From assembly GCA_902570525.1 (NCBI GenBank), contig CACFYN010000006.1:1-34303 (forward strand): a stretch of 34,303 nucleotides of DNA, given 5' to 3'. The DNA is from an uncultured Pelagibacteraceae bacterium (GTDB taxonomy: Bacteria; Pseudomonadota; Alphaproteobacteria; Pelagibacterales; Pelagibacteraceae). Each line of letters begins with the position of its first letter. Positions within the stretch are counted from its first letter, which is position 1. A program made the position numbers and the translations under genes. Positions 5,566 through 34,303 of the stretch are shown one piece after another. Under the pieces are notes generated by a model, which saw only the letters and a program-made list of their open reading frames with translations, was not told where the DNA came from and did no database searches.

Positions 5566-6504
5566 ATGATTAAAAAGATTGCCGTAATTGGTACTGGAGT
5601 TATAGGTACTGGTTGGATTATTAGATGTTTGGCTCATAATTTTAAGGTCATTGCCTATGACAAAGATCCAAAATTAAAAAAAAAAATAATTGAAGAGATA
5701 AGAAGAGCCTCGCCATTTGTTAAAAAACTCTTTAATAAAAAAAAAATTAATCTTAAAAATTTTCAATATGTAACTTCCTTAGAAGCAGCACTTAAAGATG
5801 CAGACTTTATTCAGGAAAATGCTACAGAAAATTACAAAATTAAAACCAAGTTAATGAACCTTATTGGAAAATATTCAAAAAATAATGCGATTATTTCATC
5901 TAGTTCTTCTGGCTTACTTCCTACAAAAATTTATTCAAAATGTAAAAATCCAGCAAGAACTATGATTGGACATCCATTTAATCCAGTTTATTTATGTCCC
6001 GGAGTTGAAGTTGTTGCCGGTAAAAAAACTAAAACGAAATTTTTAAATAAAGCTAATAAATTTTATAAATCTATTTCTATGAATCCAATTATTGTTAAAA
6101 AGGAATTACCTGGATATTTAGCGGATAGATTACAAGAAGCACTATGGAGAGAAGGTTTGCATATTATTAATGAAGGTTATGCAACTACTAAAGATTTAGA
6201 TAGAGCTATAGAGGATGGACCAGGACTTAGATGGTCTTTGATGGGAACATTTTTAACTTTTCACTTAGCAGGTGGTAAACTCGGAATGAAACATATGCTA
6301 GAACAATTTGGACCAGCATTAAAATTACCATGGACAAAATTAAAAGCTCCGAAACTATCAAAAAAATTATCTAGTAGAGTTATTAGTGGCACAAAATTAC
6401 AAGCAAAAGGTAAGTCTGTGGCAATGATCTCCAGCATTCGAGATGAATATCTAGTTAATCTACAAAAGCTCAGAAAGAAATATGAAGACAAATTAAGGAA
6501 ATGA
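5566..6504 (+). CDS. L-carnitine 3-dehydrogenase
   Basis: 312 residues of the 3-hydroxyacyl-CoA dehydrogenase fold. It oxidises L-carnitine to 3-dehydrocarnitine with NAD+, in the cytoplasm. Seen: the Rossmann glycine motif GTGVIGTG at residues 9-16, SSSSSGLLPT at 111-120, the catalytic-histidine block HPFNP at 136-140 with E148 shortly after, ADRL near 186-189, and C-terminal blocks LRWSLMGTF and FGPALKLPW characteristic of carnitine dehydrogenases rather than hydroxybutyryl-CoA dehydrogenases. Many alphaproteobacterial homologues carry a fused C-terminal betainyl-CoA thioesterase; here the protein stops after the dehydrogenase part and a separate thioesterase gene lies at 10874-11344 on the opposite strand. 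The start follows the oxygenase stop with no gap, so it is translationally linked to it. Confidence 0.85.
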   Translation: MIKKIAVIGTGVIGTGWIIRCLAHNFKVIAYDKDPKLKKKIIEEIRRASPFVKKLFNKKKINLKNFQYVTSLEAALKDADFIQENATENYKIKTKLMNLIGKYSKNNAIISSSSSGLLPTKIYSKCKNPARTMIGHPFNPVYLCPGVEVVAGKKTKTKFLNKANKFYKSISMNPIIVKKELPGYLADRLQEALWREGLHIINEGYATTKDLDRAIEDGPGLRWSLMGTFLTFHLAGGKLGMKHMLEQFGPALKLPWTKLKAPKLSKKLSSRVISGTKLQAKGKSVAMISSIRDEYLVNLQKLRKKYEDKLRK

Positions 6505-7293
6505 TTGTACTTAAATATCATGACCGTATTAGTAAAAAATCTAGGAAACGGAATTAAGAATATAAAAATTAATGATCCAAAGTCATATAATTCATTAACT
6601 TTTGCAACTCTAAACCTACTTTTAAAAACCTTTCAGAAAATGGATAAAGATAATTCTACAAGAGTAATTATCTTAGAAGGAGCTGGTAAAGGATTTAGCG
6701 CAGGTCATAATCTTAAAGAAGTAAGAGGACTTAAAAAAAGATCAAAATATTTAAAGTTATTTAACCTTTGTTCAAAGCTCATGATACAAATTGTAGAAGG
6801 ACGTAAACCTGTAATTGCCAAGGTTCATGGTGCAGCTTATGCGGCTGGATGTCAATTAGTTGCAAGTTGTGATCTAGCTTATAGTACTAATGATGCAATA
6901 TTTGCAACACCAGGTGTTAATATTGGATTGTTTTGTAGCACACCTATGGTTGCAGTAAGTAGAAAAGTTACAAGAAAAAGGATGATGAAAATGCTTCTCA
7001 CTGGAGAACCAATTAAAGCAAACTACGCTAAAGAAGTTGGATTGATAAATGATCATTTTTCAAAAAAAAATTTAAACAAAGAAGTTATGAAAATCGCTAA
7101 AACAATTTCTTCAAAATCAAATTTAACGATTAAAATTGGAAAACAAGCTTTCTATAAGCAGTTAGAGATGCCATTAAAAAAAGCTTATGATTTCACTGCA
7201 AAAATGATGACACTCAATATGATGTCAATTGATGCTAAAGAAGGTATTCAGGCATTTTTAGAAAAAAGAAAACCTAAATGGAAAAATAGATAA
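6505..7293 (+). CDS. Crotonase/enoyl-CoA hydratase-fold protein, catalytic glutamates missing (ECHDC3-like)
   Basis: 262 residues from a TTG at 6505 (with AGGA five bases upstream) or 257 from the ATG at 6520; the choice is open. The crotonase fold is clear: FSAGHNLKEV forms the first oxyanion-hole strand and HGAAYAAGCQL the second. In true enoyl-CoA hydratases two Glu residues act in catalysis; in this protein the corresponding sites read Gln (117 in the TTG numbering, in AAGCQL) and Gly (137, in ATPGVNIG). This matches the ECHDC3-like subgroup, whose reaction is not well defined. It sits between carnitine dehydrogenase and a CoA-binding protein, so a CoA-thioester role in amine or fatty-acid breakdown is likely. 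It should not be called CaiD: no CaiB or CaiC partner is visible. Confidence 0.72.
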   Translation: MYLNIMTVLVKNLGNGIKNIKINDPKSYNSLTFATLNLLLKTFQKMDKDNSTRVIILEGAGKGFSAGHNLKEVRGLKKRSKYLKLFNLCSKLMIQIVEGRKPVIAKVHGAAYAAGCQLVASCDLAYSTNDAIFATPGVNIGLFCSTPMVAVSRKVTRKRMMKMLLTGEPIKANYAKEVGLINDHFSKKNLNKEVMKIAKTISSKSNLTIKIGKQAFYKQLEMPLKKAYDFTAKMMTLNMMSIDAKEGIQAFLEKRKPKWKNR

Positions 7294-7760
7294 TGACTGA
7301 CGACCAGATTAAAAATATTTTAGAAAAGTCAAAAACAATTGCAATGATTGGTATTAGCTCAGAAAAAAAAGGTGAAGATCCAAAAAATTTAAAAAGAAAA
7401 CCTGCAAATGTAGTGATGAAATATATGCAAGATTTTGGTTACAAAGTGTATCCAATCAATCCTTTTGCAGAAGGTGAAATAGTCAATAATGAAAAAGTCT
7501 TAGCTGACTTAAAAAATGTTCCAGAAAAAATTGATATTGTTGATGTGTTTAGACCTTCAAAAGAAACACCAGGCATTGCCCAACAAGCTAAAGAAATTGG
7601 ATCAAAAGTTTTATGGTTGCAATACGGAATTCATAGTGACGAAGCAAAAGCAATTGCTGAAAGTTCGAATATGGAGTTTATATCTAATAGATGTATTAAG
7701 CAGGAATACCAAAAGATTTTCCAAAAGTCTAATCCTGTTTTTCCAGCACTGAAAAATTAG
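7293..7760 (+). CDS. CoA-binding Rossmann-fold protein (YccU family)
   Basis: 155 residues, starting one base inside the previous stop (TAATG). The sequence is a single CoA-binding domain of the succinyl-CoA-synthetase-alpha type: an N-terminal TIAMIGISS strand and loop, a central VYPINPFAEGE segment, IVDVFRP, and LWLQYGIHSDEA. Members of this family bind CoA or a nucleotide but have no established reaction. Its place directly behind carnitine dehydrogenase and a crotonase is consistent with handling of CoA in the same pathway. No catalytic histidine-phosphorylation partner subunit is encoded nearby, so a ligase activity is not supported. Confidence 0.72.
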   Translation: MTDDQIKNILEKSKTIAMIGISSEKKGEDPKNLKRKPANVVMKYMQDFGYKVYPINPFAEGEIVNNEKVLADLKNVPEKIDIVDVFRPSKETPGIAQQAKEIGSKVLWLQYGIHSDEAKAIAESSNMEFISNRCIKQEYQKIFQKSNPVFPALKN

Positions 7761-11377: not shown

Positions 11378-12166
11378 CTAATGTAATCTAATAGCATCTC
11401 CATCGACACCGATTACTTGTCCAGATACTCTTGCTGCATCATCAGAAATCAAAAAGCCACACATTTTCCCAATATCACTCTCATAAATCCAACAATTCAT
11501 GGATGCCATTGATATAAATTCTTTTTCAATAGATTTTTTTGAAACTCTTAAAAGTTTAGCTTTATCTTTTGCAACTCTAATCATTCTATCACCTTTTATT
11601 GTTCCTGGACATAACGCATTCACACGTATTTTAAATTTACCAAGCTCCATAGATAAAGTTTTTGTCATTCCTACAATTGCCCATTTACTTGCAGCATAAG
11701 GTGATCTTAAAGGAAAGCCCATTATTCCAGCACCTGATGAAATATTTATAATTGATCCACCCTTATTTTTTTTTAACATTGGTATTGCTAGTCTAGTGAA
11801 ATAATAATGACTAAATACATTTACTCTCATTGTATTTTCCCAATCGTCTGTTGATATATTTTCTATCGTTGCAGTTGGACCTGCTATACCAACGTTATTA
11901 ATCAGGCAATCAATTTTGGATGTCTTTTTCTTTATTTTTTCAAATAATTCATTTACTTGGTACTCGTCTGAAGCATCGCAATTAAAAACAAAGAGTTTTT
12001 TATTTATTTTTGAATTTTTTTTTAATTTATTGATATATTTTTCATTTATATCACTTACAAATACTGTCGCACCTCTATCTAAACAAACTTTAACTGTGGC
12101 TAACCCAATTCCAGATGCTCCAGCTGATATTATGATTTTTTTGTTTTTTAAAGTTTGATTTGCCAT
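11378..12166 (-). CDS. Short-chain dehydrogenase/reductase
   Basis: 262 residues of the classical SDR family: cofactor motif SAGASGIG at 14-21, NNVG near 90-93, catalytic Ser at 143-144, and Tyr157/Lys161 in the YAASK motif. An Asp at 39 after the second strand suggests NAD rather than NADP. It oxidises or reduces an alcohol/ketone in the cytoplasm; the substrate is not identifiable. First gene of the minus-strand operon leading into the thioesterase. Its start codon is only seven bases beyond a perfect terminator hairpin that follows proX, so no room remains for a separate promoter with a leader; expression may depend on read-through. A role in the carnitine/betaine pathway is suggested by context only. 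Confidence 0.78.
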   Translation of the reverse strand: MANQTLKNKKIIISAGASGIGLATVKVCLDRGATVFVSDINEKYINKLKKNSKINKKLFVFNCDASDEYQVNELFEKIKKKTSKIDCLINNVGIAGPTATIENISTDDWENTMRVNVFSHYYFTRLAIPMLKKNKGGSIINISSGAGIMGFPLRSPYAASKWAIVGMTKTLSMELGKFKIRVNALCPGTIKGDRMIRVAKDKAKLLRVSKKSIEKEFISMASMNCWIYESDIGKMCGFLISDDAARVSGQVIGVDGDAIRLH

Positions 12167-12223: not shown

Positions 12224-13231
12224 TTATTTTAGCCAAGGCTTCCATTTATCTGGATTGTTGTCTAACCACTCTTTAACAACTTCTTTTACAGGTCTTTTCT
12301 TAATATCAACTTCAACTAACATTTTAGCTTGATCAATATTTTGTAAAGACATGTTTTCGAAGAATTTTTTAGCATCAGCATGTTCAGCTTTTGCAAAAGT
12401 GGCTGGATTACCATAGTTCATTGTATAATCCTTAGCCCAACCAGTTGCTGGCCAACCTTTTGTTCCACAGTCTTTCCAGTTGTTTGCTTCAGTAAACGTA
12501 TCTGGGTCGCAAACTTTGTGGTCTGGAAGTTGAACTCCTACCATCTCATACTCACCAAAAAACCAATGCGGTGACCATAGGTATAATAAGAAAGGTTCTT
12601 TTCTCATATAAGCTGCTTTTGCTTCTGCAATAGCTGCTGCTTCTGTACCAAGTTCATCAGCTTGGAAATCAATTCCTAAAAGATCAAGTCTTTTTTGGTC
12701 ATGACAATTCCAACCAGCCACCGGACAACCAATAAGTCTACCTTTGCTTCCAGTTTCAATAGTTGCAAATTTTGCTTTGTGTTTATTTAGGTCTTTCCAA
12801 GTTTTAATACCTAGTTCATCAGCTGCATATTTTGGTATCCAGTAGTCAGACATACCAATTATTCCTGCTGTTCCAAGTAAATCTACGCTTCCATCTCCGC
12901 TGTAAGATCCTACGACTTTACCCTCGTAAATTAGATCTTCATTTAACATCACAGAGTCTGCTTCAGCATAACTTGGCCAACTTTCACAAGCAAAATCAAG
13001 TTCGCCTGCTGCAATTGCTTCCCATAAACCAGTTCCTGATGGAAATACCGTTTGCTTAATTTTATATCCATATTCTTTTTCAAGAATTGCTACAGCAACT
13101 TCACAAGTGATAATACCACCTGTCCAGTCAGCAATAGCTGCGTGTAGTCTTTTAGCATGAGCTTGCCCTAAACTACCCACTAATAGCACCAATGATAAAA
13201 ATAGTGCCGATATTGTTTTTGATAACTTCAT
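12224..13231 (-). CDS. proX: Glycine betaine/quaternary amine ABC transporter substrate-binding protein
   Basis: 335 residues with a Sec signal peptide ending near Ala26 (AHA), giving a periplasmic OpuAC/ProX-type binding protein. Several Trp residues suited to the aromatic cage that holds trimethylammonium groups are visible: W36 (DWTGG), W85 (CESWPS), W131, W219 and W223 (YLWSPHWFF). Cys pairs (169/176 and two near residues 242 and 257) may form disulfides. The gene has its own strong Shine-Dalgarno (GGAGGG, 13238-13243 on the minus strand), a plausible private promoter in the 105-base gap after proW, and a strong terminator behind it, so it is probably expressed well above the permease. 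Ligand could be glycine betaine, carnitine, gamma-butyrobetaine or a related amine. Confidence 0.88.
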   Translation of the reverse strand: MKLSKTISALFLSLVLLVGSLGQAHAKRLHAAIADWTGGIITCEVAVAILEKEYGYKIKQTVFPSGTGLWEAIAAGELDFACESWPSYAEADSVMLNEDLIYEGKVVGSYSGDGSVDLLGTAGIIGMSDYWIPKYAADELGIKTWKDLNKHKAKFATIETGSKGRLIGCPVAGWNCHDQKRLDLLGIDFQADELGTEAAAIAEAKAAYMRKEPFLLYLWSPHWFFGEYEMVGVQLPDHKVCDPDTFTEANNWKDCGTKGWPATGWAKDYTMNYGNPATFAKAEHADAKKFFENMSLQNIDQAKMLVEVDIKKRPVKEVVKEWLDNNPDKWKPWLK

Positions 13232-13237
13232 TATTTT

Positions 13238-13243
13238 CCCTCC
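13238..13243 (-). promoter_or_regulatory. Strong ribosome binding site of proX
   Basis: On the minus strand GGAGGG lies six bases before the proX ATG. It is one of the best Shine-Dalgarno matches in the window and supports high translation of the binding protein. Confidence 0.65.
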
Positions 13244-13263
13244 AATGAATTAATTAAAAACTT

Positions 13264-13293: not shown

Positions 13294-13336
13294 CCCCTCG
13301 AAAAAACGCACTAATTACTTGCAATATTGAGTGAAT

Positions 13337-15451
13337 TTAAAGGCCTAATGCTTCTCTTTGTTTTCTCGTCCAAGCCAAAGTAATTCTGTCTATTATTATA
13401 GCTAAAAGAACAATACCGATCCCTGCTGCTAGACCTCTCCCAGTGTCAGATCTTGCTAATCCATTAAACACCTCTAAACCTAGACCCTTACCACCAATCA
13501 ATGGTGTAACTATTTGCATTGCAAAGGCCATTATTACTGTTTGGTTAAAGCCTATAACTAAACTTGGAACCGCTAGTGGAAATTTTATTTTTCTTAAAGT
13601 CTGAATTAACGTTCCACCAAATGATCTTGATACTTCTGAGTAAGTTCCTGATACCTGTGTTAAACCCAAACAAGTTAATCTTACTATAGGTGGTATCGAG
13701 TAAATAACAGTAGCTAAAACAGCAGAAACAATTCCACCACCAAAAAACATTAGAACTGGTATTAGATAACAGAAATAGGGAAGAGTTTGCATCGCATCTA
13801 ATACAACGTTTTGAATATTCCTAAATCTTTCACTATAAGATGCTATTATTCCTAAAGGTACTCCAACTACAAAACATAAAGCAACTGAAACCAAAACAGA
13901 TGATAGAGTAATCATTGATTGAGACCAGATTCCACAGGCACCGATAAAAAGCAATAATATAGCAGTTATGATTGCAAATCTTACTCCAACAGTTATGTAA
14001 CCCAAAGCAACAAATACAGCCATAGTGTACCACCAAGGTATGTGAGTTAAGAAAACATCTAATGGACGCAATAAATTAAGATAGACAAAAGCCCTTAAAC
14101 TTTTTGTAAAAGCAATAAAACCTGGATTCACAGTTAAACTTTCCACAGCATTTGTAATTGGTTGTCTTATAGATAGTTTCCATTCTTCTGGAAAAGAACC
14201 AAAGCTAACTAAATATGTGTCGATTAAACTAATTAGAAAAAAAACTATAAATGACGGTATTATATAATATCGTTTACTTATAAATTCTTTAATATCATTT
14301 GCAGTTCTTTTATTAAATATTGAAATTAAAAACTGAAAAAAATAGGCAATTAAACCAGTAACAAATAAACAGACATATTTAATCACATCATGAGAAATTT
14401 TTATAGGTTGCTCTATAATTCTTGCTAAAGAATATTTAGCCCAACTTTGTGGTAAAAAATAAAATTTCTGCACATCATCTGGAATTCTTTCTTCGGTTTT
14501 ACTGAATGACATGCTGAACCTATCAAACATTATTGCCATAAACAAAATACAAAGCCCACCTTCCATAGCCCATCCAACATCGAGCCTTCTAATAGCCTGC
14601 CAAACCTGTCCACCAATACCTTCAGCTCCAATGAAACATGCAAGAACAACGAGGGCCAGAGCCATCATAATTACCTGATTGATACCCATCATGATACTAG
14701 GCAATGATAAAGGAATTTTAATTTTAAATAAAAGCTGTAATTTATTTGAACCAAATGCAGTCGCGCTTTCTATGGTTTGTGCTGGAACTTGTCGTATTCC
14801 TGAATTTGTTAATCTTATAATTGGAGGCATTCCATAAATCATAGTTGCAAGAATTGCTGGTGCACCACCGATACCAAAAAAAAATAAAGCAGGAAATAAA
14901 TATACAAAAGCTGGCATCACCTGCATGGTATCTAAAACTGGTTTCATAAAATTTTCAAACCGGTCACTTTGAGAACATAACACTCCAAGAATAAATCCAA
15001 AAAATACACAAAGTAAAACTGATAAACCCATTAAAGCAACGGTTTGAAGAGAAGGTTCCCACATACCTGTTGCACCCCAAAAATAAACTACAAATAATGA
15101 GTAGAGACCAAGTCTTAAACCACCTGCAATCAAACATGGTAAAAATATTATAGTAGCGATTAATAACCATGGAGAATCAAGTAAAAAATCTTCTACAAAA
15201 TAATAGCAAGCCTTAATATATCCAGCTACAATTTTTGTCATCCATCTGTAGTTTTTTTTTAAAAAATCTTCTCCCTCATTTACCCATGCAGTAAAAGTAA
15301 ATTGATCTGTTACATACTTTGGAAACTTTGATGGGCCTTCGTTTTGAGTAGAAAGCCATAGAGCAACTAAAAATACTAATCCAACTATTAAATAAGTTAT
15401 GATATTTTTTGATTGGCTTGATTTTTTTATAATTTCAGTGCTGGAAGACAT
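13337..15451 (-). CDS. proW: Glycine betaine-type ABC transporter permease, fused double-domain ProW
   Basis: 704 residues, about twice the usual ProW length, because two complete permease domains are joined in one chain. The first core (about residues 135-315) has its EAA cytoplasmic loop near 229-247 (SATAFGSNKLQLLFKIKIP); the second (about 510-695) has a matching loop near 606-625. Each core has the same order of motifs: DTMQVMPAFVYLFP versus DAMQTLPYFCYLIP, MIYGMPPIIRLT versus VIYSIPPIVRLT, FIGAEGIG versus LIGGKGLG. Extra membrane segments precede each core. The fusion means a single polypeptide can form the whole membrane channel. It is divergent from proV across 78 bases and upstream of proX. 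Confidence 0.88.
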   Translation of the reverse strand: MSSSTEIIKKSSQSKNIITYLIVGLVFLVALWLSTQNEGPSKFPKYVTDQFTFTAWVNEGEDFLKKNYRWMTKIVAGYIKACYYFVEDFLLDSPWLLIATIIFLPCLIAGGLRLGLYSLFVVYFWGATGMWEPSLQTVALMGLSVLLCVFFGFILGVLCSQSDRFENFMKPVLDTMQVMPAFVYLFPALFFFGIGGAPAILATMIYGMPPIIRLTNSGIRQVPAQTIESATAFGSNKLQLLFKIKIPLSLPSIMMGINQVIMMALALVVLACFIGAEGIGGQVWQAIRRLDVGWAMEGGLCILFMAIMFDRFSMSFSKTEERIPDDVQKFYFLPQSWAKYSLARIIEQPIKISHDVIKYVCLFVTGLIAYFFQFLISIFNKRTANDIKEFISKRYYIIPSFIVFFLISLIDTYLVSFGSFPEEWKLSIRQPITNAVESLTVNPGFIAFTKSLRAFVYLNLLRPLDVFLTHIPWWYTMAVFVALGYITVGVRFAIITAILLLFIGACGIWSQSMITLSSVLVSVALCFVVGVPLGIIASYSERFRNIQNVVLDAMQTLPYFCYLIPVLMFFGGGIVSAVLATVIYSIPPIVRLTCLGLTQVSGTYSEVSRSFGGTLIQTLRKIKFPLAVPSLVIGFNQTVIMAFAMQIVTPLIGGKGLGLEVFNGLARSDTGRGLAAGIGIVLLAIIIDRITLAWTRKQREALGL

Positions 15452-25453: not shown

Positions 25454-26182
25454 TTAATTTTGATAATCAGGTTCTTCTTTATCTAAAATTAATCTGATTT
25501 GATCTAAATGTGCTCTCCCCATATCAGAAGGATAGTTTGACCACTCTTGTGCTGTTTTTTCTGCCACTTCGTGTGATGCTACATTTAATTCTTTTCCAGT
25601 TGCTAAAGCAGTTAAATATGTTTCTGCAGATTTTTCAAAATAATATAATGCATCAAATCCATCCGAAACAGTTTCACCAGTAGTTAAAATTCCATGATTT
25701 GACATTAACAGATTCTGTTTATTTCCCAATGCAGCTGCCATTTTAAGCGACTCTTCTTCAAAACCCATACCACCATACTCATTATATATAGATACTCGGT
25801 TATAAAACCTCATCGTATTTTGATCTATTGGAGGAAGAGTAGGGTTTTTCAAAGCAGAAAGAGCTGTTGCGTATTTTGAATGAACATGAAATATGCATTT
25901 TGCATGAGGTACTTTTTGGTGAATTGTCCCATGAATATTTATTGCAGTAGCATCCACAAGGTCGGGTTTTTTTTTTAATTCCTCGATATTTTCTTTGTTA
26001 ACCAAAATTAAATCGCTTACTTTCATTTGGCTAAAATGAACACCTGATTTATTAACTAAAAATTCATCAGTCGAACCGGGCACACATGCGCTAAAGTGGT
26101 TTGCAACCCCCTCATTCATATTCAATCTAGCAGTCCATCTAAAGGTAGCTGCTAAATCTTTTTTTAATTCTGTTATTTCCAT
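25454..26182 (-). CDS. Class II aldolase/adducin-domain protein
   Basis: 242 residues with the zinc site of the FucA/AraD fold: H99-x-H101 (FHVHS) and H163 (SNHGIL). The catalytic Glu of fuculose-phosphate aldolase (in a SSE-type motif before the HxH pair) is replaced by Ala-Thr-Ala around residues 78-80, so a standard sugar-phosphate aldol cleavage is doubtful; many adducin-like members of this type have unknown or decarboxylase-like activities. It is the first gene of the six-gene minus operon and divergent from the beta-keto acid cleavage enzyme across 33 bases. Likely role: metal-dependent C-C bond or carbonyl chemistry feeding the following aldehyde dehydrogenase (inference). Confidence 0.77.
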   Translation of the reverse strand: MEITELKKDLAATFRWTARLNMNEGVANHFSACVPGSTDEFLVNKSGVHFSQMKVSDLILVNKENIEELKKKPDLVDATAINIHGTIHQKVPHAKCIFHVHSKYATALSALKNPTLPPIDQNTMRFYNRVSIYNEYGGMGFEEESLKMAAALGNKQNLLMSNHGILTTGETVSDGFDALYYFEKSAETYLTALATGKELNVASHEVAEKTAQEWSNYPSDMGRAHLDQIRLILDKEEPDYQN

Positions 26183-26215: not shown

Positions 26216-27100
26216 ATGAACAATAAAGTATTTATCTCCTGTGCAGTTACTGGATCTGGTGATACTGCTAAAAAACATCCTGATTTACCAAAGACACCAG
26301 AACAAATCGCAAAATCTGCAATCGAAGCAGCAAAAGCAGGTGCAGCGATTGCACATATACATGTTAGAGAGGAAGATGGAACACCAAGTAGAAGATTAGA
26401 GTTATACAAAGAAGTTGTCGATAGAATCAGATCATCAGACACAGATGTAGTTCTAAATCTTACAACTGGAATGGGTGGTGATTTAGATATAGGAGAAAAT
26501 AGTCCACTTCAATTTGGTCCATTAACTGATATGGCGAATGTAATGGAAAGAATTGCAAATGCCGAACAGTTCTTGCCTGAGATTTGTACTCTTGATTGCG
26601 GGACTTTAAATTTTGGAGATGGATCTGTTATTACAATTAATACCCCAAGAGATTTAAGAAAAGCAGCAAAAAGACTTCAAGAAATAAAAGTTAAACCAGA
26701 GATAGAAGCTTTTGATTTAGGGAATATGTGGTTTGGAACTCAGTTATATCAAGAGGGATTACTCAGTGATCCCCCAATGTTCCAAATGTGTTTAGGTATT
26801 CCTTGGGGCGCACCCGCTACACCTTTAGCAATGCAAGCAATGAAAGATATTATGCCGAAAGAGGCAGTATGGAGTGGTTTCGCAATTTCTAAAAATGAAA
26901 TGCCTTATGTTGCTCAAACAGTAGTAATGGGTGGAAACCCAAGAGTAGGGCTTGAGGATAATTTATATATTTCAAAAGGAAAGTTAGCTACAAATGCTCA
27001 ACTAGTTGAAAAAGCAAGAAGAATTGTTGAGGACTTAGGAGCTTCAGTAATGACGCCTGCCGAAACTAGAGAAAAGTTAAAACTAGTAAAGCATAAATAA
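26216..27100 (+). CDS. Beta-keto acid cleavage enzyme (BKACE, formerly DUF849), probable 3-dehydrocarnitine cleavage
   Basis: 294 residues of the BKACE family, which condense a beta-keto acid with acetyl-CoA and release acetoacetate and a new CoA thioester. Zinc ligands are visible: H47 and H49 (AHIHVRE) and E247 (RVGLEDNLY), plus LTTGMGG near 82-88 and GIPWGAP near 194-200. BKACE enzymes with 3-dehydrocarnitine as substrate give betainyl-CoA. Carnitine dehydrogenase and a betainyl-CoA-type thioesterase in the same window make that the best-supported substrate here, though other cationic beta-keto acids are possible. Short divergent gap to the class II aldolase-like operon; the pseudoazurin gene follows after 78 bases. 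Confidence 0.86.
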   Translation: MNNKVFISCAVTGSGDTAKKHPDLPKTPEQIAKSAIEAAKAGAAIAHIHVREEDGTPSRRLELYKEVVDRIRSSDTDVVLNLTTGMGGDLDIGENSPLQFGPLTDMANVMERIANAEQFLPEICTLDCGTLNFGDGSVITINTPRDLRKAAKRLQEIKVKPEIEAFDLGNMWFGTQLYQEGLLSDPPMFQMCLGIPWGAPATPLAMQAMKDIMPKEAVWSGFAISKNEMPYVAQTVVMGGNPRVGLEDNLYISKGKLATNAQLVEKARRIVEDLGASVMTPAETREKLKLVKHK

Positions 27101-27178
27101 ATCTTTCAAACTATATCCTGTGGCAACTTGCTCCAATATTAGAGTTGATAAGATAACTTTTAATATTAAATAACCATC

Positions 27179-27622: not shown

Positions 27623-28675
27623 TTAATTAGTTTTAACTGCTTCTTTTAAATGTTCTTTGGCAAGTGCTTTAGATAACTCTTTTTGGGTTAGATAACCCTT
27701 AGTATTTCCACTTTTATCTACAACCTCACAGTTTGCATTTGAACAAACTACTTGTGGTAGGAATTCCTCTATAAATTGATCTTCATTTATTTTAACAAGA
27801 TTTGATTTGTCAATATTATCAACCTCATTTACTGATTTCATTATTATTTTGGCCTTTATAACTTTTGCTCTATTTACATCTTTAACAAATGCTGAAACAT
27901 AATCATCTGCAGGTTTCATTATTATTTCTATTGGGGTTCCGACTTGAACTAATCTTCCTCCATTTAAAATTCCAATATGATCACCTAATTTTAAAGATTC
28001 ATCTAAATCATGGGTAATAAAAACTATCGTTTTTTTTAATTCGCCTTGTAAATCAAGCAACTGTTTTTGCATGTCACTTCTTATTAAAGGGTCAAGTGCA
28101 GAAAAAGCTTCATCCATTAATAATATGTCAGTGTCAGTAGCAAGCGCTCTTGCTAAACCAACTCTTTGTTGCATACCTCCAGATAGTTGGTTTGGGTATT
28201 GGTTTTCAAAGCCACTTAAACCAACAGCTTCTATTTTTTCCATAGCAACTTTATTTTTATCTTCAGGTTTTTTACCCTGAACCTCAAGTCCGTAACCAAC
28301 ATTTTCTAAAACAGTTTTATGTGGAAATAGCCCAAATCTTTGAAAAACCATGCTCATTTTATGTCTTCTAAAATCTATTAATTTATTTTTGTCTAAACTC
28401 ATCACGTCAGTACCTTCTACAGAAACCACACCTGATGTTGGGTCGATTAAACGATTAATATGTCTTATTAAAGTAGATTTACCTGAACCAGATAAACCCA
28501 TACATACAAATGTTTCACCTTCATCAATCTTAAGTGACACATTATCTAAACCTACTGTATGTCCTGTTTTTTCTAAAACTTCTTCTTTAGTAGCACCTTC
28601 TTGTACCATCGGTAGGATCTTCTTTGGAGAGGGACCAAATATTTTATAAACGTTATTAATTTCAATTTTACTCAT
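27623..28675 (-). CDS. proV: Second glycine betaine-type ABC transporter ATPase (orphan)
   Basis: 350 residues of the ProV/OpuAA type, with Walker A GLSGSGKST at 60-68, ABC signature LSGGMQQR at 164-171, Walker B and DE at 188-189 (LMDEAFSALDP) and a C-terminal CBS-like stretch from about 265 to 350. It resembles the proV at 15530 but has a different N-terminal insert and signature-adjacent Ala instead of Pro after DE. No permease or binding protein lies next to it: the downstream neighbour is pseudoazurin on the other strand and upstream is the divergent gamma-butyrobetaine dioxygenase. It may serve the proW/proX system of 12224-15451 or a distant one. Confidence 0.83.
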   Translation of the reverse strand: MSKIEINNVYKIFGPSPKKILPMVQEGATKEEVLEKTGHTVGLDNVSLKIDEGETFVCMGLSGSGKSTLIRHINRLIDPTSGVVSVEGTDVMSLDKNKLIDFRRHKMSMVFQRFGLFPHKTVLENVGYGLEVQGKKPEDKNKVAMEKIEAVGLSGFENQYPNQLSGGMQQRVGLARALATDTDILLMDEAFSALDPLIRSDMQKQLLDLQGELKKTIVFITHDLDESLKLGDHIGILNGGRLVQVGTPIEIIMKPADDYVSAFVKDVNRAKVIKAKIIMKSVNEVDNIDKSNLVKINEDQFIEEFLPQVVCSNANCEVVDKSGNTKGYLTQKELSKALAKEHLKEAVKTN

Positions 28676-28810: not shown

Positions 28811-29935
28811 ATGTTTAGTATTTCAAAACTTGAAAAAAATGGAACTTACCTAAGAATTCTTTGGAGCGATGGAGAAGAAAGTAAATTTAATTATTTATGG
28901 TTAAGAGATAATTGTCCAACGGCTCACGACAAAGATTCTAGGCATAGAATGTTTGATATATTAAACGTTTCTAAAAATTTAAATCCAACAACATATAAAG
29001 TAAATGATGAGGGTAAACTAGAAATAGTTTGGAGTGAGGGAAATCATACAAGTTTTTACGACATTAATTGGTTAAGAAAAAACTGTTACACAATCAAAAA
29101 TAAACAAAAATATATTTCTCCATACCAACTTTGGGATAAATCGATTGAAAAAAATATTCAGTCTATAAGCATTAATTGCGATGAAATCATGTCTTCAGAG
29201 GAAGGTTTAATAAAGTGGTTAAAACTTCTTCACTATAAAGGAATAGCTTTAGTAAATAACGCACCAACAAAAGAAAAGTCAGCTTTTGAAGTTTTAAATA
29301 GAATTAGCCACACAAGAGAAACTTTTTTTAAAACACCTTTTGAAGTTATAAATATACCTAAACCAAATAACTCAGCCTATACAGCTCACGCATTGAAAAA
29401 TCATATGGATTTACCCTGGTTTGAAAATCCACCAGGCTATCAGTTTTTACATTGTCTTATAAATTCTGCTAATGGAGGAGATTCTTCAGCAGTTGATGGT
29501 TTTGCTGTTGCAGATTACTTAAAAAATAATGAAAAGGATATTTTTGATACTTTGGTAAATGTACCGTTAAAATTTAGAGATAAAGATTATACCCAGCAAG
29601 CTCACAGAAGTTTTTATGCTCCTGCAATAAGTTTAACTAAAGATGGTGATTATAATGATATTAGATTTAGTGTTGCAACTATGGATGCATTAGATTGTCA
29701 TCCAGATGTAATGGACCAAGTTTATTTCGCGCATCATAGATTTGGCAATCTGTTACATGATGATAGATTTGTTATTAAGTTCAGACTAAATCCAGGGGAT
29801 ATATACTCTTTTAATAACAGAAGAGTTTTGCACGGCAGAACAGCATTCGATCCTAACTCAGGACATAGACACTTACAAGGTTACTATATGGATCGTGATG
29901 AAATAATAGGAAGACTTAGTTATCTTTCACAATAA
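28811..29935 (+). CDS. Gamma-butyrobetaine dioxygenase (2-oxoglutarate-dependent, TauD family)
   Basis: 374 residues with the two-part layout of BBOX1 homologues: an N-terminal DUF971-type domain (about residues 8-105, block WLRDNCP) and a TauD/TfdA catalytic domain. Fe(II) ligands H198, D200 and H341, and R353 for 2-oxoglutarate, stand at the expected spacing (HMD, HGRTAFD). It hydroxylates gamma-butyrobetaine to L-carnitine in the cytoplasm. The N-terminal zinc cluster of the animal enzyme (three Cys and a His) is reduced to one Cys (C35) with His residues at 39 and 45, a state seen also in other proteobacterial-type members. Trimethyllysine dioxygenase is the nearest alternative. Divergent from proV, so uptake and first oxidation could be co-controlled. 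Confidence 0.83.
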   Translation: MFSISKLEKNGTYLRILWSDGEESKFNYLWLRDNCPTAHDKDSRHRMFDILNVSKNLNPTTYKVNDEGKLEIVWSEGNHTSFYDINWLRKNCYTIKNKQKYISPYQLWDKSIEKNIQSISINCDEIMSSEEGLIKWLKLLHYKGIALVNNAPTKEKSAFEVLNRISHTRETFFKTPFEVINIPKPNNSAYTAHALKNHMDLPWFENPPGYQFLHCLINSANGGDSSAVDGFAVADYLKNNEKDIFDTLVNVPLKFRDKDYTQQAHRSFYAPAISLTKDGDYNDIRFSVATMDALDCHPDVMDQVYFAHHRFGNLLHDDRFVIKFRLNPGDIYSFNNRRVLHGRTAFDPNSGHRHLQGYYMDRDEIIGRLSYLSQ

Positions 29936-30589
29936 TTATAAATTTTCAATAATAAGATTTTTTCCTAAAAATTTTGTTCTAACTTTTTTATCTTTTAGTG
30001 TGTAAAAATAAATTGGTTTTTTTATTTTTATAAGTTTTTTATTAGTAAGAAATTTTTTTTCTAAAACTAATAATCTAAGGTACTTTAATTTACTTTTTTG
30101 TAAAATTAGTTTTATTGAAGTGGTCGAAGAAAAAACTAGCCCTAAATTTAGATTTTTTTTAATTTTATTTAAATTTGAAATATTTTTTTCATTAAAAGAG
30201 GTTATGCTATAATGTTTTAATCTCTTTATAATAGGAATAAGATTTAAAAAATTTTTTTTTGAAAATTTTGATTTAATTTCTAGCATTAAGTAATTTTTTT
30301 TCGAAATTTTGATTACCTCATTCAAAGTTGGAATATGCATTTTATATTTTGATGCTATTTTATTTATATCTTTATATTTTAAATTTTTTATTAACTTTTT
30401 ACTCTTAAATCGTTTTAGGCTAAAATCATGATAACATACAATTTTATTATCTAAAGTTGTATGTAAATCAGTTTCAATTCCATATTTTTTTTTAAAGCAA
30501 AACTTGAAGGCTTTAATTGAATTTTCTTTGAAAGTTTTATTTGCGAGCCCTCTATGAATAATATTATGACCTTGTTTGTTAAATCTCAT
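29936..30589 (-). CDS. Glycerophosphodiester phosphodiesterase
   Basis: 217 residues, a compact GDPD barrel. The catalytic set is present near the N-terminus: H12-R13 (HRG), E39-x-D41 (IETDLH) and H54 (YHD). It splits glycerophosphodiesters such as glycerophosphocholine into glycerol-3-phosphate and the alcohol. No signal peptide, so cytoplasmic. The coding region is unusually AT-rich with long A/T runs and the product is dominated by Lys, Leu and Ile. The start overlaps the upstream beta-hydroxyacid dehydrogenase stop by 11 bases, implying co-translation. If it acts on glycerophosphocholine it would supply choline, which fits the methylated-amine theme, but no choline or betaine-aldehyde dehydrogenase is clearly present. 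Confidence 0.82.
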   Translation of the reverse strand: MRFNKQGHNIIHRGLANKTFKENSIKAFKFCFKKKYGIETDLHTTLDNKIVCYHDFSLKRFKSKKLIKNLKYKDINKIASKYKMHIPTLNEVIKISKKNYLMLEIKSKFSKKNFLNLIPIIKRLKHYSITSFNEKNISNLNKIKKNLNLGLVFSSTTSIKLILQKSKLKYLRLLVLEKKFLTNKKLIKIKKPIYFYTLKDKKVRTKFLGKNLIIENL

Positions 30590-31520
30590 AACCTTTCTTT
30601 TCAGGCTCTTTATCTATAAGTTCGGTTGGAAAACCTTTTGCTCTAAATTCTATTTTATTTTTATCCTCCATTCTTTTAACTATCATTGAAGACCAGGCAC
30701 GAGGACCATAGCTTTTCAAACCTTCCTGAAAAATTTTTACAATCATTGGTGATATTTCTAAAGATGAATTAAGTTTTTTTGCTAAATTATCAAATAAGGA
30801 AGTATCCTTTAAAACTAAATCCATTGTAAAATTTATATTATAGGAACCATTTAATATTACTTGGCTTTCTGTTTCATGCACAAATGAATTTCCAGAGGAA
30901 ATAGCAATTCCCTTAAAAGTTTTTTCTAAATCCAAATTAGATTTTTGTGCAACAGTCCAAGCTTCACCTAACGCAACTAAATGAACTGATGCTAAGTAAT
31001 TCGTTATAACTTTTAAAACAGAGGCAGAGCCCAATTCTCCAGTATGAAGAATTTTTTCACCCATCGCCGAAAGAGCAGAAAAAATTTTTTCAAATGCAGA
31101 TCTTTCTCCACCAACGAATATTGCTATATTTCCTGTATCAGCTCTATGGCACCCACCACTTACAGGTCCATCAAGAGCAAATGCTTTTTTTTGTTTAACT
31201 AACTTTCCAATTCTTTTTACCTCGTTTTCATCCGTTGTACTCATTTCGAGCCATATCTTATTCTTTGACAATCCATTAATTACACCGTTTTTAGACTCCA
31301 TTACTTCTCTACATATTTTAGGCGAGGGTAAGCATGTAATAATTAGATCAGAGTCTTGAGTAAGTTCTTTTGGATTTTTTGAAATACTTGCTCCTTTTGA
31401 ACTTAAATTGTCCATTGTTTTTGGGTCAAGATCGTAAACAGTCAATTTGAAGTTGTTTCTCAATAGACTGCCTGCAAGTTTCCCACCAACGTTTCCTAGG
31501 CCTATAAAACCAATTTTCAT
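30579..31520 (-). CDS. NAD-dependent beta-hydroxyacid dehydrogenase (3-hydroxyisobutyrate dehydrogenase family)
   Basis: 313 residues with the Rossmann motif GLGNVGG at 7-13, substrate-binding DGPVSGG at 117-123, and catalytic K170 with N174 (LKVITN). The family includes 3-hydroxyisobutyrate dehydrogenase, tartronate semialdehyde reductase and 6-phosphogluconate-like enzymes. The exact substrate is unclear. It is divergent from the DUF4864-like small gene and precedes the glycerophosphodiesterase in a two-gene minus-strand operon. Tartronate semialdehyde or a related C3/C4 hydroxyacid is as likely as 3-hydroxyisobutyrate. Confidence 0.8.
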   Translation of the reverse strand: MKIGFIGLGNVGGKLAGSLLRNNFKLTVYDLDPKTMDNLSSKGASISKNPKELTQDSDLIITCLPSPKICREVMESKNGVINGLSKNKIWLEMSTTDENEVKRIGKLVKQKKAFALDGPVSGGCHRADTGNIAIFVGGERSAFEKIFSALSAMGEKILHTGELGSASVLKVITNYLASVHLVALGEAWTVAQKSNLDLEKTFKGIAISSGNSFVHETESQVILNGSYNINFTMDLVLKDTSLFDNLAKKLNSSLEISPMIVKIFQEGLKSYGPRAWSSMIVKRMEDKNKIEFRAKGFPTELIDKEPEKKGYEI

Positions 31521-32258: not shown

Positions 32259-32302
32259 AATTTTGTTTCGTTCAAACCAAAAATCTAGTAGGAATCGGTT
32301 TT

Positions 32303-34303
32303 ATGAAATCAAAAGCTAAAGTAGTTATTGTTGGAGGTGGAGTAGTTGGTGTAAGTGCTTTATATCATTTAGCAAAAAAAGGCTGGTCTGACGTTGTATT
32401 AGTTGAGAGAAAAGAGCTTACCTCTGGTTCAACATGGCATGCTGCAGGTTTACTGCCACTCTTTAATATGAGTTACTCGGTTGGCCAATTACACAAATAC
32501 GCTGTTGACCTTTATAAAACTCTTGAAGAAGAGACAGGTAAAAATGTTGGCTTTAGTGTTGTTTCAAATATTAGACTTGCAAGTACAAAAGATAGAATGG
32601 ATGAATACCATCAGTACGCTGGTGTTGCACAAACAATAGGTGTAGATGTAAAATTTTTAACACCAGATCAAGTAAAAGAAATTTGGCCTTTATGTAATAC
32701 AAGTGATTTGGTTGGAGCAATTCAACACCCAGAGGATGGATACATTCAACCTGCTGATCTTACTCAAGCTTTAGCTACTGGTGCAAGAAATAGAGGAGCA
32801 GAGATTTACAGAAATACAAACGTAGTTGGAATTAAACAAACAAAAAATGGCTGGGTCGTTGAAACTGATAAAGGGAGTATTGAATGTGAACATGTTATGT
32901 CATGCTCAGGAAACTTTGCAAGACAAACAGGAAAAATGGTTGGATTAGAAATACCAGTAATACCAGTTGAACATCAATATATTGTTACAGAGCCTCATCC
33001 TGAAATTCAAAAAAGAAAAAAAGAAGGTTTACCTGAAATGGGAGTATTAAGAGATAGTGATAGCAGATGGTACATGAGGGAAGAAGCTGGTGGTCTTATA
33101 CTTGGACCTTATGAAGATGGTGCTCCATGTTGTTATGTTGATGGACCATCAAAAGATTCTGAATACGAATTATTTCAAGAAGATTTAGACAGATTAGCTC
33201 CACATATTGAAGGTGCAATTCACAGAGTTCCTGCTTTTGGAGAGGTAGGAGTGAAGAAAGTTTATAATGGAGCAATTTGTTATACTCCAGATGGGAATCC
33301 AATTGTTGGACCTGCATGGGGACTTAAAAACTTTTGGATAAACGAAGGTCATAGTTTTGGAATAACTGCGGCTGGAGGAGCAGGTTGGCAATTAGCAGAA
33401 TGGATTGTAGATGGCGAACCTACAATTGACATGCTTGGTGTTGAACCTAGAAGATATGGTGATTATTGCTCTAAGTCCTATTTAAAAGAAAAGAATGAAG
33501 AAGCTTATAGAAATGTATTCATAATTCATTACCCTGATGAAGAAAGAGAAGCAGCAAGACCATTAAGAACAGCACCGTGTTATGACAGAATGAAAAAATT
33601 AGGAGCTGTATTTGGTCAAAAATTTGGGTGGGAAAGACCTAATTTTTTTGCAACTGATGGTATGGAACAAAAAGACGACTGGTCCTTTAGAAGATCAAAA
33701 TGGTTTAAAGCAGTTGAAAAAGAATGTAAGAACGTTAGAGAAAATGTCGGACTTTTAGACATGACAGCATTTGCAAAATGTAGAATAAAAGGTCCAAAAG
33801 CAGAAGAATTTTTAGATAATTTGGTTGCAAATAAACTTCCAAAAAAAGTAGGTAGAGTAAATTTATGTCATGCTTTAAACACAAAAGGCGGCGTGCATTC
33901 AGAATTTACAATCTTAAGAGAAGCCGAGGATAGCTTCTATTTAGTTTCTGCTGGGGCTTTTCAAAGACTTGATCATGACTGGATCCATAAATGGATGCCT
34001 AAAGATGGAAGTGTGATATTTGAAAATTTAACTAATAGTACAGGAGTGTTAGTAGTTGCAGGTCCAAAATCAAGAGAGCTAATGCAAAGAGTTTCTAAAG
34101 ATGATTTTTCTAATGAGAATTTTAAATGGTTGAGTGCGAAAAATGTAGATGTTGGTTATGCACCTGTAAATGCTATGAGAGTAAATTTTGTTGGTGAGCT
34201 AGGCTGGGAACTCCATCACCCAATTGAATATCAAAACCATATATTTGACAAGTTAATGGAGGCGGGAAAAGATTTAGGTTTAAAACCTTTTGGAATAAGA
34301 GCG
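32303..34303 (+). CDS. Dimethylglycine dehydrogenase (FAD oxidase / folate-type fusion), 3' end beyond window
   Basis: ATG at 32303 with an AGGA-type site eight bases upstream; the reading frame runs open to the window end (667 codons), so the stop lies outside. Domains in order: FAD-binding DAO fold with GGGVVG at residues 11-16, covalent-FAD histidine H46 in GSTWHAAG, FAD domain end near 370 (EGHSFGITAAGG), a middle FAO_M region about 375-430, then a GCV_T/aminomethyltransferase-like part from about 450 with GELGWELHHP near residue 633. This architecture matches dimethylglycine dehydrogenase: it demethylates dimethylglycine to sarcosine, passing one-carbon units to tetrahydrofolate. Sarcosine dehydrogenase has the same layout and is the main alternative. 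It completes the betaine branch encoded in this window. Confidence 0.87.
   Translation, partial: MKSKAKVVIVGGGVVGVSALYHLAKKGWSDVVLVERKELTSGSTWHAAGLLPLFNMSYSVGQLHKYAVDLYKTLEEETGKNVGFSVVSNIRLASTKDRMDEYHQYAGVAQTIGVDVKFLTPDQVKEIWPLCNTSDLVGAIQHPEDGYIQPADLTQALATGARNRGAEIYRNTNVVGIKQTKNGWVVETDKGSIECEHVMSCSGNFARQTGKMVGLEIPVIPVEHQYIVTEPHPEIQKRKKEGLPEMGVLRDSDSRWYMREEAGGLILGPYEDGAPCCYVDGPSKDSEYELFQEDLDRLAPHIEGAIHRVPAFGEVGVKKVYNGAICYTPDGNPIVGPAWGLKNFWINEGHSFGITAAGGAGWQLAEWIVDGEPTIDMLGVEPRRYGDYCSKSYLKEKNEEAYRNVFIIHYPDEEREAARPLRTAPCYDRMKKLGAVFGQKFGWERPNFFATDGMEQKDDWSFRRSKWFKAVEKECKNVRENVGLLDMTAFAKCRIKGPKAEEFLDNLVANKLPKKVGRVNLCHALNTKGGVHSEFTILREAEDSFYLVSAGAFQRLDHDWIHKWMPKDGSVIFENLTNSTGVLVVAGPKSRELMQRVSKDDFSNENFKWLSAKNVDVGYAPVNAMRVNFVGELGWELHHPIEYQNHIFDKLMEAGKDLGLKPFGIRA

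What the first reader, a model, noticed from the sequence alone, without database searches (positions are those of the whole stretch)
5566..34303. Scattered but near-complete gamma-butyrobetaine/carnitine-to-sarcosine pathway
Sequence motifs support: gamma-butyrobetaine dioxygenase (28811), L-carnitine dehydrogenase (5566), BKACE (26216), betainyl-CoA-type thioesterase (10874), homocysteine methyltransferase (22707), dimethylglycine dehydrogenase (32303), with a betaine-type ABC importer (12224-16576). The known pathway runs exactly in this order, yet the genes lie in at least five transcription units on both strands over about 29 kb, interleaved with unassigned enzymes. A streamlined marine cell that draws carbon, nitrogen, methyl groups and one-carbon units from quaternary amines is implied.
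Basis: partly seen in the sequence, partly recalled or inferred. Interest (0 to 1): 0.8.

Follow-up and report, generated by a model that had tools for sequence, protein, structure and literature searches.

The report
Carnitine-to-betaine genes in SAR11 bacterium
A tiny ocean bacterium of the SAR11 group carries, in one island of genes, what looks like a set for turning gamma-butyrobetaine and carnitine into the nutrient glycine betaine; the island was reported in 2025, but in some relatives two of its key genes appear to be exchanged for a single different enzyme.

Summary
The genes are real and sit at the stated coordinates. The window is a whole contig of a SAR11 (Pelagibacteraceae) genome. 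BKACE (26216), carnitine dehydrogenase-like (5566), a 4HBT thioesterase (10874) and a butyrobetaine-dioxygenase-like protein (28811) match proteins encoded together in Pseudomonas, Burkholderia and rhizobial clusters; in 101 relatives CDH occurs in 55 of 59 genomes with BKACE and 0 of 42 without. Core route butyrobetaine -> carnitine -> dehydrocarnitine -> betainyl-CoA -> glycine betaine: supported by homology and linkage, not shown. Corrections: the 22707 methyltransferase is not BHMT (a BHMT-like gene lies elsewhere, in two relatives upstream of this locus); CDH looks scattered because this lineage carries it 21 kb from BKACE, whereas 16 of 21 same-genus genomes with both have them side by side. 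The island itself is prior art (mBio 2025, PMC12421898). New here: in a 397-genome order sample, 25 genomes pair the same dioxygenase with a class II aldolase-fold protein, never with BKACE (0 of 25; CDH 0 of 28), with shared flanks. That suggests a second, undescribed way of handling the dioxygenase product; its chemistry is open, and the exchange rests on few evolutionary events.

The parts
28811..29935 (+). gamma-butyrobetaine-dioxygenase-like Fe/2-oxoglutarate oxygenase (BBOX-like)
   Evidence: TIGR02409 312.1 bits (cut-off 414.75), GBBH-like_N + TauD; Fe-ligand positions H202/D204/H347 (human numbering) kept, Y177F W181F Y205L N292S
5566..6504 (+). L-carnitine 3-dehydrogenase-like (CDH)
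   Evidence: NF005471 342.7 bits (cut-off 414); 42-47% to CDHs next to BKACE in Caballeronia, Burkholderia and Novosphingobium, 37-38% in Sinorhizobium, Leisingera and Paracoccus
26216..27100 (+). [quoted passage not shown]
   Evidence: PF05853 315.6; identity
10874..11344 (-). 4HBT-fold thioesterase, predicted betainyl-CoA thioesterase
   Evidence: matches C-terminal domain of fused CDH model NF005716 and cluster thioesterases; retained in 11 of 15 readable aldolase-variant loci, which weakens a role tied to BKACE alone
12224..13231 (-). ProX/OpuAC-type substrate-binding protein
   Evidence: PF04069 145.6
13337..15451 (-). 704-aa permease with two BPD_transp_1 stretches
   Evidence: TIGR03416 420.8 over cut-off 363, 2 stretches
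15530..16576 (+). ProV-type ATPase
   Evidence: TIGR01186 364.8 over cut-off 326.6
27623..28675 (-). second ProV-type ATPase, next to BBOX
   Evidence: TIGR01186 353.8 over cut-off 326.6; in some relatives followed by its own permease/SBP
11378..12166 (-). SDR dehydrogenase conserved beside BKACE/CDH in relatives
   Evidence: PF13561/PF00106; position
24009..25442 (-). aldehyde dehydrogenase, betaine-aldehyde-type similarity
   Evidence: TIGR01804 424.7 (cut-off 668.6); beside BBOX or BKACE in relatives
25454..26182 (-). class II aldolase/adducin-fold protein, PRK07490 type
   Evidence: NF005689 316.2 over cut-off 260; homologues lie next to BBOX-like genes in rhizobial and rhodobacteral plasmids
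17547..18740 (+). iron-type alcohol dehydrogenase (choline-DH-like GbsB similarity)
   Evidence: NF053866 242.3 (cut-off 550); next to BKACE-CDH-BBOX in G063
29936..30589 (-). GDPD-family phosphodiesterase
   Evidence: PF03009 60.3
30579..31520 (-). beta-hydroxyacid dehydrogenase (HIBADH-like)
   Evidence: PF03446/PF14833; found near BBOX/ALDH in both island variants
22707..23618 (-). homocysteine S-methyltransferase-like, not BHMT
32303..34303 (+). dimethylglycine/sarcosine dehydrogenase-type protein, cut by contig end
   Evidence: DAO + FAO_M + GCV_T; full length 810 aa in G026/G037

Best explanation
The window holds a variable quaternary-amine catabolic island of a SAR11 (Pelagibacteraceae) cell. 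Betaines enter through ProXWV-type importers. The BBOX-like oxygenase (28811) hydroxylates gamma-butyrobetaine to L-carnitine; CDH (5566) oxidises carnitine to 3-dehydrocarnitine; BKACE (26216) cleaves it with acetyl-CoA into betainyl-CoA and acetoacetate; the thioesterase (10874) frees glycine betaine. Acetoacetate is reactivated by an acetoacetate-CoA ligase encoded elsewhere in this genome. Glycine betaine is demethylated by a BHMT-like enzyme encoded outside the window, then by DMGDH-type enzymes, one of which begins at 32303. Shown: the genes, their conservation, clustering and co-occurrence. Inferred: every substrate and the direction of flux, and the presence of BHMT in this very genome.
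For: Co-occurrence in 101 relatives: CDH in 55 of 59 genomes with BKACE, 0 of 42 without. BKACE-CDH adjacent in 16 of 21 same-genus genomes with both and in 68 of 78 named loci with room, from SAR11 to Pseudomonas, Burkholderia and Nocardiopsis. BKACE-CDH-BBOX contiguous in the three genomes of the second family f2 that I read, G061, G063 and G072. All 15 Pseudomonas and all 5 Burkholderia loci of the scan have CDH and a thioesterase near BKACE; 8 of 15 and 4 of 5 also have BBOX, in Pseudomonas 0.4-0.65 kb after CDH. Acetoacetate-CoA ligase, over its cut-off (741 vs 520.9), is next to the ALDH beside the f2 cluster, is annotated beside BKACE-CDH in Leisingera, and in family f1 it is found in 22 of 24 genomes with BKACE, the window's own (G000:C9) included, against 10 of 37 without. 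In the 397-genome order sample BBOX and BKACE go together in 150 genomes, of 184 with BBOX and 159 with BKACE. PMC12482172 (passages) describes carnitine -> dehydrocarnitine -> betainyl-CoA -> glycine betaine in P. aeruginosa (naming DhcAB for the last step) and an S. meliloti dehydrogenase that also turns betainyl-CoA into glycine betaine, in line with the thioesterase resembling the C-terminal part of fused CDHs.
Against: CDH and BBOX fall below the curated NCBIfam cut-offs. Two residues that I recall as binding the butyrobetaine carboxylate in human BBOX1 are changed (Y205L, N292S), although the cluster-linked Burkholderia enzyme has L and A there. Twelve of the 80 scanned BKACE loci have no CDH in the stretch held, among them the nearest ones outside the genus (L107, L108, L114, 76-77% identical). 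The thioesterase is kept in 11 of 15 readable aldolase-variant loci without BKACE. BBOX occurs without BKACE in 34 of 184 genomes of the order sample (25 with the aldolase, 9 with neither). Acetoacetate-CoA ligase also occurs in genomes without BKACE. No activity or growth data; genome G000 is 65% complete.
Confidence: 0.74

Rival explanations
1. The same three-step chemistry acts on a different onium acid, for example delta-valerobetaine/homocarnitine (giving beta-alanine betaine) or the sulfonium gonyol (giving DMSP). BBOX would hydroxylate the beta carbon, CDH oxidise it, and BKACE plus thioesterase remove two carbons.
For: Changed residues in the presumed carboxylate end of the BBOX pocket, uniform in the SAR11 sequences examined. 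A DddP DMSP lyase, over its cut-off (788 vs 600), is directly downstream of BBOX in the f2 genome G061. PMC11773067 (abstract and passages) shows mammalian BBOX hydroxylates delta-valerobetaine to homocarnitine. Gonyol is made by marine phytoplankton (PMC7221440, title and abstract start in a listing only).
Against: The reference clusters with the nearest named CDHs and BKACEs are annotated as carnitine dehydrogenase clusters. BHMT-like and DMGDH-type genes beside the cluster in G061, and near the CDH slot in G025, point to glycine betaine as the product. Gonyol already bears the hydroxyl group and would not need BBOX (chemistry recalled).
Confidence: 0.13
2. The island mainly supplies glycine betaine from choline and glycerophosphocholine (GDPD, alcohol dehydrogenases, ALDH, ProXWV) for osmoprotection in the cold; the carnitine genes are accessory. 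This is close to the reading of the mBio 2025 paper.
For: GDPD, iron-type ADH and ALDH are in the window, and many relatives have a GMC choline dehydrogenase (over the cut-off of NF002550, 750 vs 605, below that of TIGR01810, 683 vs 732). [quoted passage not shown]
Against: The GMC choline dehydrogenase is not among the 34 window genes scanned. The contiguous core shared by both families read is BKACE-CDH-BBOX, not the choline genes. BKACE is present in 159 of 397 genomes of the order sample.
Confidence: 0.1
3. The genes are unrelated enzymes that happen to lie together.
For: Eleven strand blocks and several genes without an obvious place (amidase, MsrA, beta-lactamase fold, pseudoazurin).
Against: Co-occurrence and adjacency counts.
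Confidence: 0.03

Closest known systems
Arctic SAR11 genomic island (mBio 2025, PMC12421898; section 7 and passages read)
   Same: Same gene kinds: glycine betaine ABC transporter, ALDH, ADH, CDH, BBOX, BKACE, class II aldolase, thioesterase, GDPD, lactoylglutathione-lyase type, 3-hydroxyisobutyrate DH type, DMT transporter; SAR11 host; variable presence.
   Different: The paper reports 17-20 genes in conserved order, with a choline dehydrogenase; the window lacks the GMC choline dehydrogenase and has CDH 21 kb from BKACE. The parts read do not assign the stepwise route or mention an aldolase-for-CDH/BKACE exchange. The supplementary tables could not be read.
Aerobic carnitine catabolism of Pseudomonas/Burkholderia/Sinorhizobium (CDH, BKACE, betainyl-CoA hydrolysis)
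   Same: BKACE-CDH order in relatives, thioesterase, nearby BBOX in 8 of 15 Pseudomonas and 4 of 5 Burkholderia loci.
   Different: No GlxA-type regulator among the window genes scanned; CDH unlinked from BKACE in this window; importers and extra enzymes differ.
Gamma-butyrobetaine dioxygenase / TmpA family
   Same: GBBH-like N-terminal domain, TauD fold, Fe-ligand positions kept.
   Different: 36% identical to the Burkholderia cluster BBOX; pocket residues differ from human BBOX1 and from TmpA; below both curated cut-offs.
BHMT of SAR11 (SAR11_1173 in PMC12478193, passages read)
   Same: A BHMT-like gene is in the near-identical genome G017.
   Different: It is not gene 22707 and is not in the window; not found in the incomplete G000.

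Membership tests
Aerobic carnitine-to-glycine-betaine pathway (CDH/BKACE/thioesterase) | BKACE close to the CDH-linked ones | tested here: met
   53-66% identity to CDH-adjacent BKACEs outside genus g1 vs 49, 43 and 33% to solved 3c6c, 9zsc, 2y7d; deep branches are unresolved and 3c6c/9zsc are not excluded from the group; the 77% relative L107 has no CDH in its stretch
Aerobic carnitine-to-glycine-betaine pathway (CDH/BKACE/thioesterase) | carnitine dehydrogenase: curated model cut-off | tested here: not met
   NF005471 is the best family but 342.7 vs cut-off 414; so 'CDH-like'
Aerobic carnitine-to-glycine-betaine pathway (CDH/BKACE/thioesterase) | CDH linked to BKACE | tested here: met
   Adjacent in 16 of 21 same-genus genomes with both; not in this window, where both are present 21 kb apart
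Aerobic carnitine-to-glycine-betaine pathway (CDH/BKACE/thioesterase) | betainyl-CoA thioesterase domain | tested here: inconclusive
   Resembles the fused CDH C-terminal domain but 25-31% identity only, and kept in 11 of 15 readable loci that lack BKACE
Aerobic carnitine-to-glycine-betaine pathway (CDH/BKACE/thioesterase) | means to use acetoacetate | tested here: met
   acetoacetate-CoA ligase homologue at G000:C9:22169-23746; not specific, 10 of 37 f1 genomes without BKACE have one too
Aerobic carnitine-to-glycine-betaine pathway (CDH/BKACE/thioesterase) | activity on carnitine | not testable with these tools
   needs enzymes or cultures
Gamma-butyrobetaine dioxygenase | curated model TIGR02409 cut-off | tested here: not met
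   312.1 vs 414.75 bits; so called BBOX-like, not filed as a member
Gamma-butyrobetaine dioxygenase | Fe/2OG residues | tested here: met
   positions H202, D204, H347, R360 the same in the 43 SAR11 sequences aligned
Gamma-butyrobetaine dioxygenase | human pocket residues (roles recalled) | tested here: not met
   Y177F, W181F, Y205L, N292S; N191 and Y194 kept; the Burkholderia cluster enzyme also differs
Betaine-homocysteine methyltransferase (gene 22707) | closer to BHMT than to other homocysteine methyltransferases | tested here: not met
   compared
Dimethylglycine dehydrogenase | DAO + FAO_M + GCV_T architecture | tested here: met
   DMG versus sarcosine not resolved, gene truncated
Arctic SAR11 glycine betaine island | gene set as listed in the paper | tested here: met
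   the GMC choline dehydrogenase is missing here, and an SMR transporter was not seen (three EamA transporters were)
Arctic SAR11 glycine betaine island | gene order and insertion site | not testable with these tools
   supplementary tables not available

The most novel reading that the evidence does not exclude
SAR11 has a second, undescribed way to cut the carnitine carbon chain. At this locus some strains carry, instead of CDH and BKACE, a class II aldolase-fold metal enzyme coupled to the same BBOX. The dioxygenase product would be cleaved directly, for example to betaine aldehyde plus a C2 unit, and the neighbouring aldehyde dehydrogenase would turn the aldehyde into glycine betaine, with no need for NAD-linked carnitine oxidation or acetyl-CoA. 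A related BBOX-aldolase pair recurs in rhodobacteral and rhizobial plasmids, in two of those read beside carnitine genes.
Probability: 0.3. Interest if true: 0.75.

Novelty: new member of a known kind. Interest (0 to 1): 0.5.

Why it matters
SAR11 cells are among the most abundant in the ocean (recalled), and carnitine and butyrobetaine are little-studied betaines there. A gene-level route from them to glycine betaine tells which SAR11 strains could draw carbon, nitrogen, methyl groups and glycine from these compounds, and gives marker genes (BKACE-CDH-BBOX). The mutually exclusive BKACE and aldolase versions of one locus turn an open question, whether there is more than one way to break carnitine aerobically to glycine betaine, into a test of a few genes.

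Tried and rejected
Rejected: 22707 as the betaine methyltransferase. Rejected: BBOX as a TmpA orthologue; its TmpA model score is lower (269.9 vs 312.1), no HD-domain family was found among the 34 window genes scanned, and the tree separates them (one short row, L144, was dropped there, and several branches are long). No Rfam match in the window at E up to 0.1; no tRNA or tmRNA.

Considered and weakened: reading the class II aldolase as a classical retro-aldolase. Nearest solved chains are adducin and uncharacterised or FucA-type aldolases, and further down the decarboxylase NovR and TqaM; by eye, and against FucA residues recalled rather than fetched, the FucA catalytic glutamate seems absent, so I claim only a metal-binding C-C-cleaving or decarboxylating fold.

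Caveats on the exclusivity: a BBOX tree of 43 sequences needs only 2 changes of variant, so the genome counts reflect few evolutionary events. In that tree and, three of the 25 'BKACE-type' rows (G111, G127, G351) come from genomes without a BKACE match and were classed by island layout. They are three of the nine BBOX genomes with neither BKACE nor the aldolase; in all three the contig ends on the side where BKACE would be expected. The other six (G097, G137, G307, G397, G413, G434) were not read.

No structure was predicted or compared. The paper searches aimed at an aldolase route were (open-access PMC only): they listed just the mBio 2025 paper and three papers on human subjects. Gonyol degradation was searched for once, by listing, and no paper was opened.

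Full report
What the window is. The window is contig C6 (1-34303, whole) of genome G000, 722 kb, 65% complete. Single-contig same-genus genomes are 1.2-1.5 Mb. GC is 27-36% in 2-kb steps.

The observation. NCBIfam and Pfam give: CDH-like 5566, enoyl-CoA hydratase 6505, thioesterase 10874, SDR 11378, ProX-type binding protein 12224, double permease 13337, ProV 15530, iron ADH 17547, amidase 18746, homocysteine methyltransferase-like 22707, glyoxalase-fold 23624, ALDH 24009, class II aldolase-fold 25454, BKACE 26216, pseudoazurin-like 27179, second ProV 27623, BBOX-like 28811, GDPD 29936, beta-hydroxyacid dehydrogenase 30579, and a DAO-GcvT protein at 32303 running off the contig. CDH and BBOX score below the curated cut-offs of their best models (342.7 vs 414; 312.1 vs 414.75), so the names are 'like'.

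Tests of the carnitine reading. Plasmid records gave reference clusters: Caballeronia BKACE-CDH-thioesterase, Novosphingobium and S. meliloti BKACE plus CDH with a thioesterase-like part, Leisingera acetoacetate-CoA ligase-BKACE-CDH, Paracoccus, and Burkholderia arboris BKACE-CDH-thioesterase followed by BBOX, unannotated and read by tblastn. The window BKACE is 53-61% identical to these and to the f2 homologues, and 66% to an uncultured alphaproteobacterial one next to CDH (L111), against 49, 43 and 33% for solved chains 3c6c, 9zsc and 2y7d. The deep tree is poorly resolved. The 12 without CDH include seven SAR11 loci and the nearest outside the genus, L107, L108 and L114 (76-77%); some of these stretches are short.

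Co-occurrence. In 101 relatives BKACE is present in 59 (the tally of 61 at E<=0.001 includes two weak matches, G023 and G047), CDH (E<=1e-50) in 55, and all 55 lie within the 59. The four BKACE genomes without CDH are G009, G020, G026 and G069; most relatives are incomplete. In 16 of the 21 same-genus genomes with both, the genes are side by side; the exceptions are G000 (the window), G017, G053, G025 and G055. In G000, G053 and G025 the CDH follows a halogenase-like gene in another conserved slot; in G017 it lies at the same distance from BKACE as in the window, its left neighbours not read.

Acetoacetate. Cleavage by BKACE would make acetoacetate. Acetoacetate-CoA ligase is next to the ALDH beside the f2 cluster and over its cut-off. 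A homologue 54% identical over the part present, cut short near a contig end, is in G000. In f1 it is found in 22 of 24 genomes with BKACE and in 10 of 37 without, so it is associated but not specific.

BBOX. The Fe-ligand positions are kept, but Y177F, W181F, Y205L and N292S (human numbering; pocket roles recalled) differ from human BBOX1. In a tree the SAR11 proteins group with the Pseudomonas/Burkholderia proteins encoded in BKACE-CDH clusters and four other bacterial ones, apart from TmpA and human BBOX1, with 90/94 support and several long branches.

Downstream of glycine betaine. Gene 22707 is not BHMT: it scores 54.8 bits to human BHMT, while a 346-aa protein of G017 scores 159. In G025 and G034 the BHMT-like gene and a second DMGDH-type gene lie upstream of the slot that holds the halogenase-like gene; by analogy they would lie beyond the left end of this window, which is not shown. 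In G000 itself only one PF02574 gene, 22707, was found, which in a 65% complete genome decides nothing. PMC12478193 (passages) says SAR11 has a human-like BHMT, not experimentally validated.

The unexpected part. The BBOX orthologue also occurs without BKACE and CDH. In G034, G040, G042 and G058 it overlaps or abuts a 243-aa class II aldolase-fold gene. I therefore sampled the order: of 397 genomes, 184 have the BBOX orthologue (E<=1e-80), 159 BKACE (E<=1e-40), 150 both; 25 have the 243-aa protein at 71-100% identity (75 genomes matched at E<=1e-30; the other 50 have only 32-37% matches and were not counted). All 25 have BBOX and 0 of 25 have BKACE; for 24 of 25 the listed coordinates put the two genes within about 25 bp (for G278 the BBOX place was not listed). 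CDH is absent (E<=1e-40) from 28 of 28 such genomes searched, the 25 and G040, G042, G058, among them one single-contig genome of 99% completeness (G110); the same query rang in 55 of 101 relatives. Of 20 human positions checked, 17 are invariant and alike in both variants, 203 and 207 differ in one aldolase-type row, and 293 varies within both; only two N-terminal positions separate the 15 aldolase-type from the 25 BKACE-type sequences. The flanks are those of the window: G263 reads 4343-type gene, halogenase-like, enoyl-CoA hydratase, CoA-binding, MsrA, flavodoxin, 2OG oxygenase, EamA, ProV, aldolase, BBOX, ALDH, HIBADH-like, D4864, DMGDH, with small extra genes, and G034 the same order. Outside SAR11, BBOX-like genes lie beside a class II aldolase related to that of the window (PRK07490 type) in at least 9 of 39 plasmid records with BBOX (coordinates; only 40 of 320 aldolase records were listed, so this is a floor); in three further records of one strain group they are about 3 kb apart, with an IS66 element between them in the one read. 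In Sulfitobacter W027 the pair sits beside carnitinyl-CoA dehydratase, CDH and BKACE; in Palleronia beside a CoA ligase, an acyl-CoA dehydrogenase and carnitinyl-CoA dehydratase, without CDH or BKACE in the stretch read; in Paracoccus seriniphilus beside a NAD(P)-dependent oxidoreductase, ALDH, a GMC oxidoreductase and a betaine importer, with CDH and BKACE some 30 kb away; in Pseudooceanicola no carnitine gene is annotated nearby.

What it may mean. If BBOX makes the same product in both contexts, that product is taken either by CDH+BKACE or by the aldolase-fold protein. Both could end in glycine betaine, the second through betaine aldehyde and the ALDH that adjoins BBOX in 13 of the 15 aldolase-variant loci where this could be read. 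Against this: the thioesterase is retained in 11 of 15 readable aldolase loci; relatives of the fold in the PDB include non-aldolases such as NovR and TqaM; carnitine lacks the usual carbonyl group for a retro-aldol (recalled chemistry); and the BBOX tree needs only 2 changes, so the exclusivity rests on few events. The window itself carries both a class II aldolase-fold gene of another type and BKACE. I give the new route 0.3.

Prior art and novelty. [quoted passage not shown] So the island is known. This work adds the stepwise assignment with tests, the correction on BHMT, the distribution (BKACE in 159 of 397 genomes of the order sample, 61 of 151 of the more complete ones), and the BKACE/aldolase exchange, which I did not find in two searches of open-access papers.

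Noticed in passing
G034:C4, G110:C1, G263:C6 and 22 others; compare window 25454-28675: A 243-aa class II aldolase-fold gene beside the BBOX orthologue stands in for CDH and BKACE in 25 of 397 genomes.
   Followed up: partly
window 4714-5565: Halogenase-like Fe/2OG oxygenase (PF23169 HalD 44.3 bits, cut-off 26), 79-90% identical in relatives next to CDH or beside the SDR; with 8904-9872 and 28811-29935 it makes three 2OG-type oxygenases in 25 kb.
   Followed up: no
L059:1573-2943 (G061, family f2): DddP DMSP lyase over its cut-off (788 vs 600) lies directly downstream of BKACE-CDH-BBOX; some f1 genomes have a 411-aa DddP-like protein below cut-off (355) upstream of the halogenase-like gene.
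   Followed up: partly
window 1-4302: Two tandem genes with autotransporter beta-domains at the left end of the contig.
   Followed up: no
window 7760-8332 and 22236-22691: Two MsrA methionine sulfoxide reductases within one island.
   Followed up: no
L058:13993-15087; G017:C11 16612-17715: A second TmpA-like dioxygenase (347 and 330 bits, cut-off 400), beside acetoacetate-CoA ligase in f2 and elsewhere in f1.
   Followed up: no
L026:6950-10738 (G037): Relatives carry a GMC choline dehydrogenase, a taurine-dioxygenase-like and a CitE-like lyase between EamA and BKACE that this window lacks.
   Followed up: partly
L166:12051-13226 (G034): Rieske oxygenase weakly like GbcA (118 bits, cut-off 670) between a DMGDH-type gene and the DddP-like gene.
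   Followed up: no
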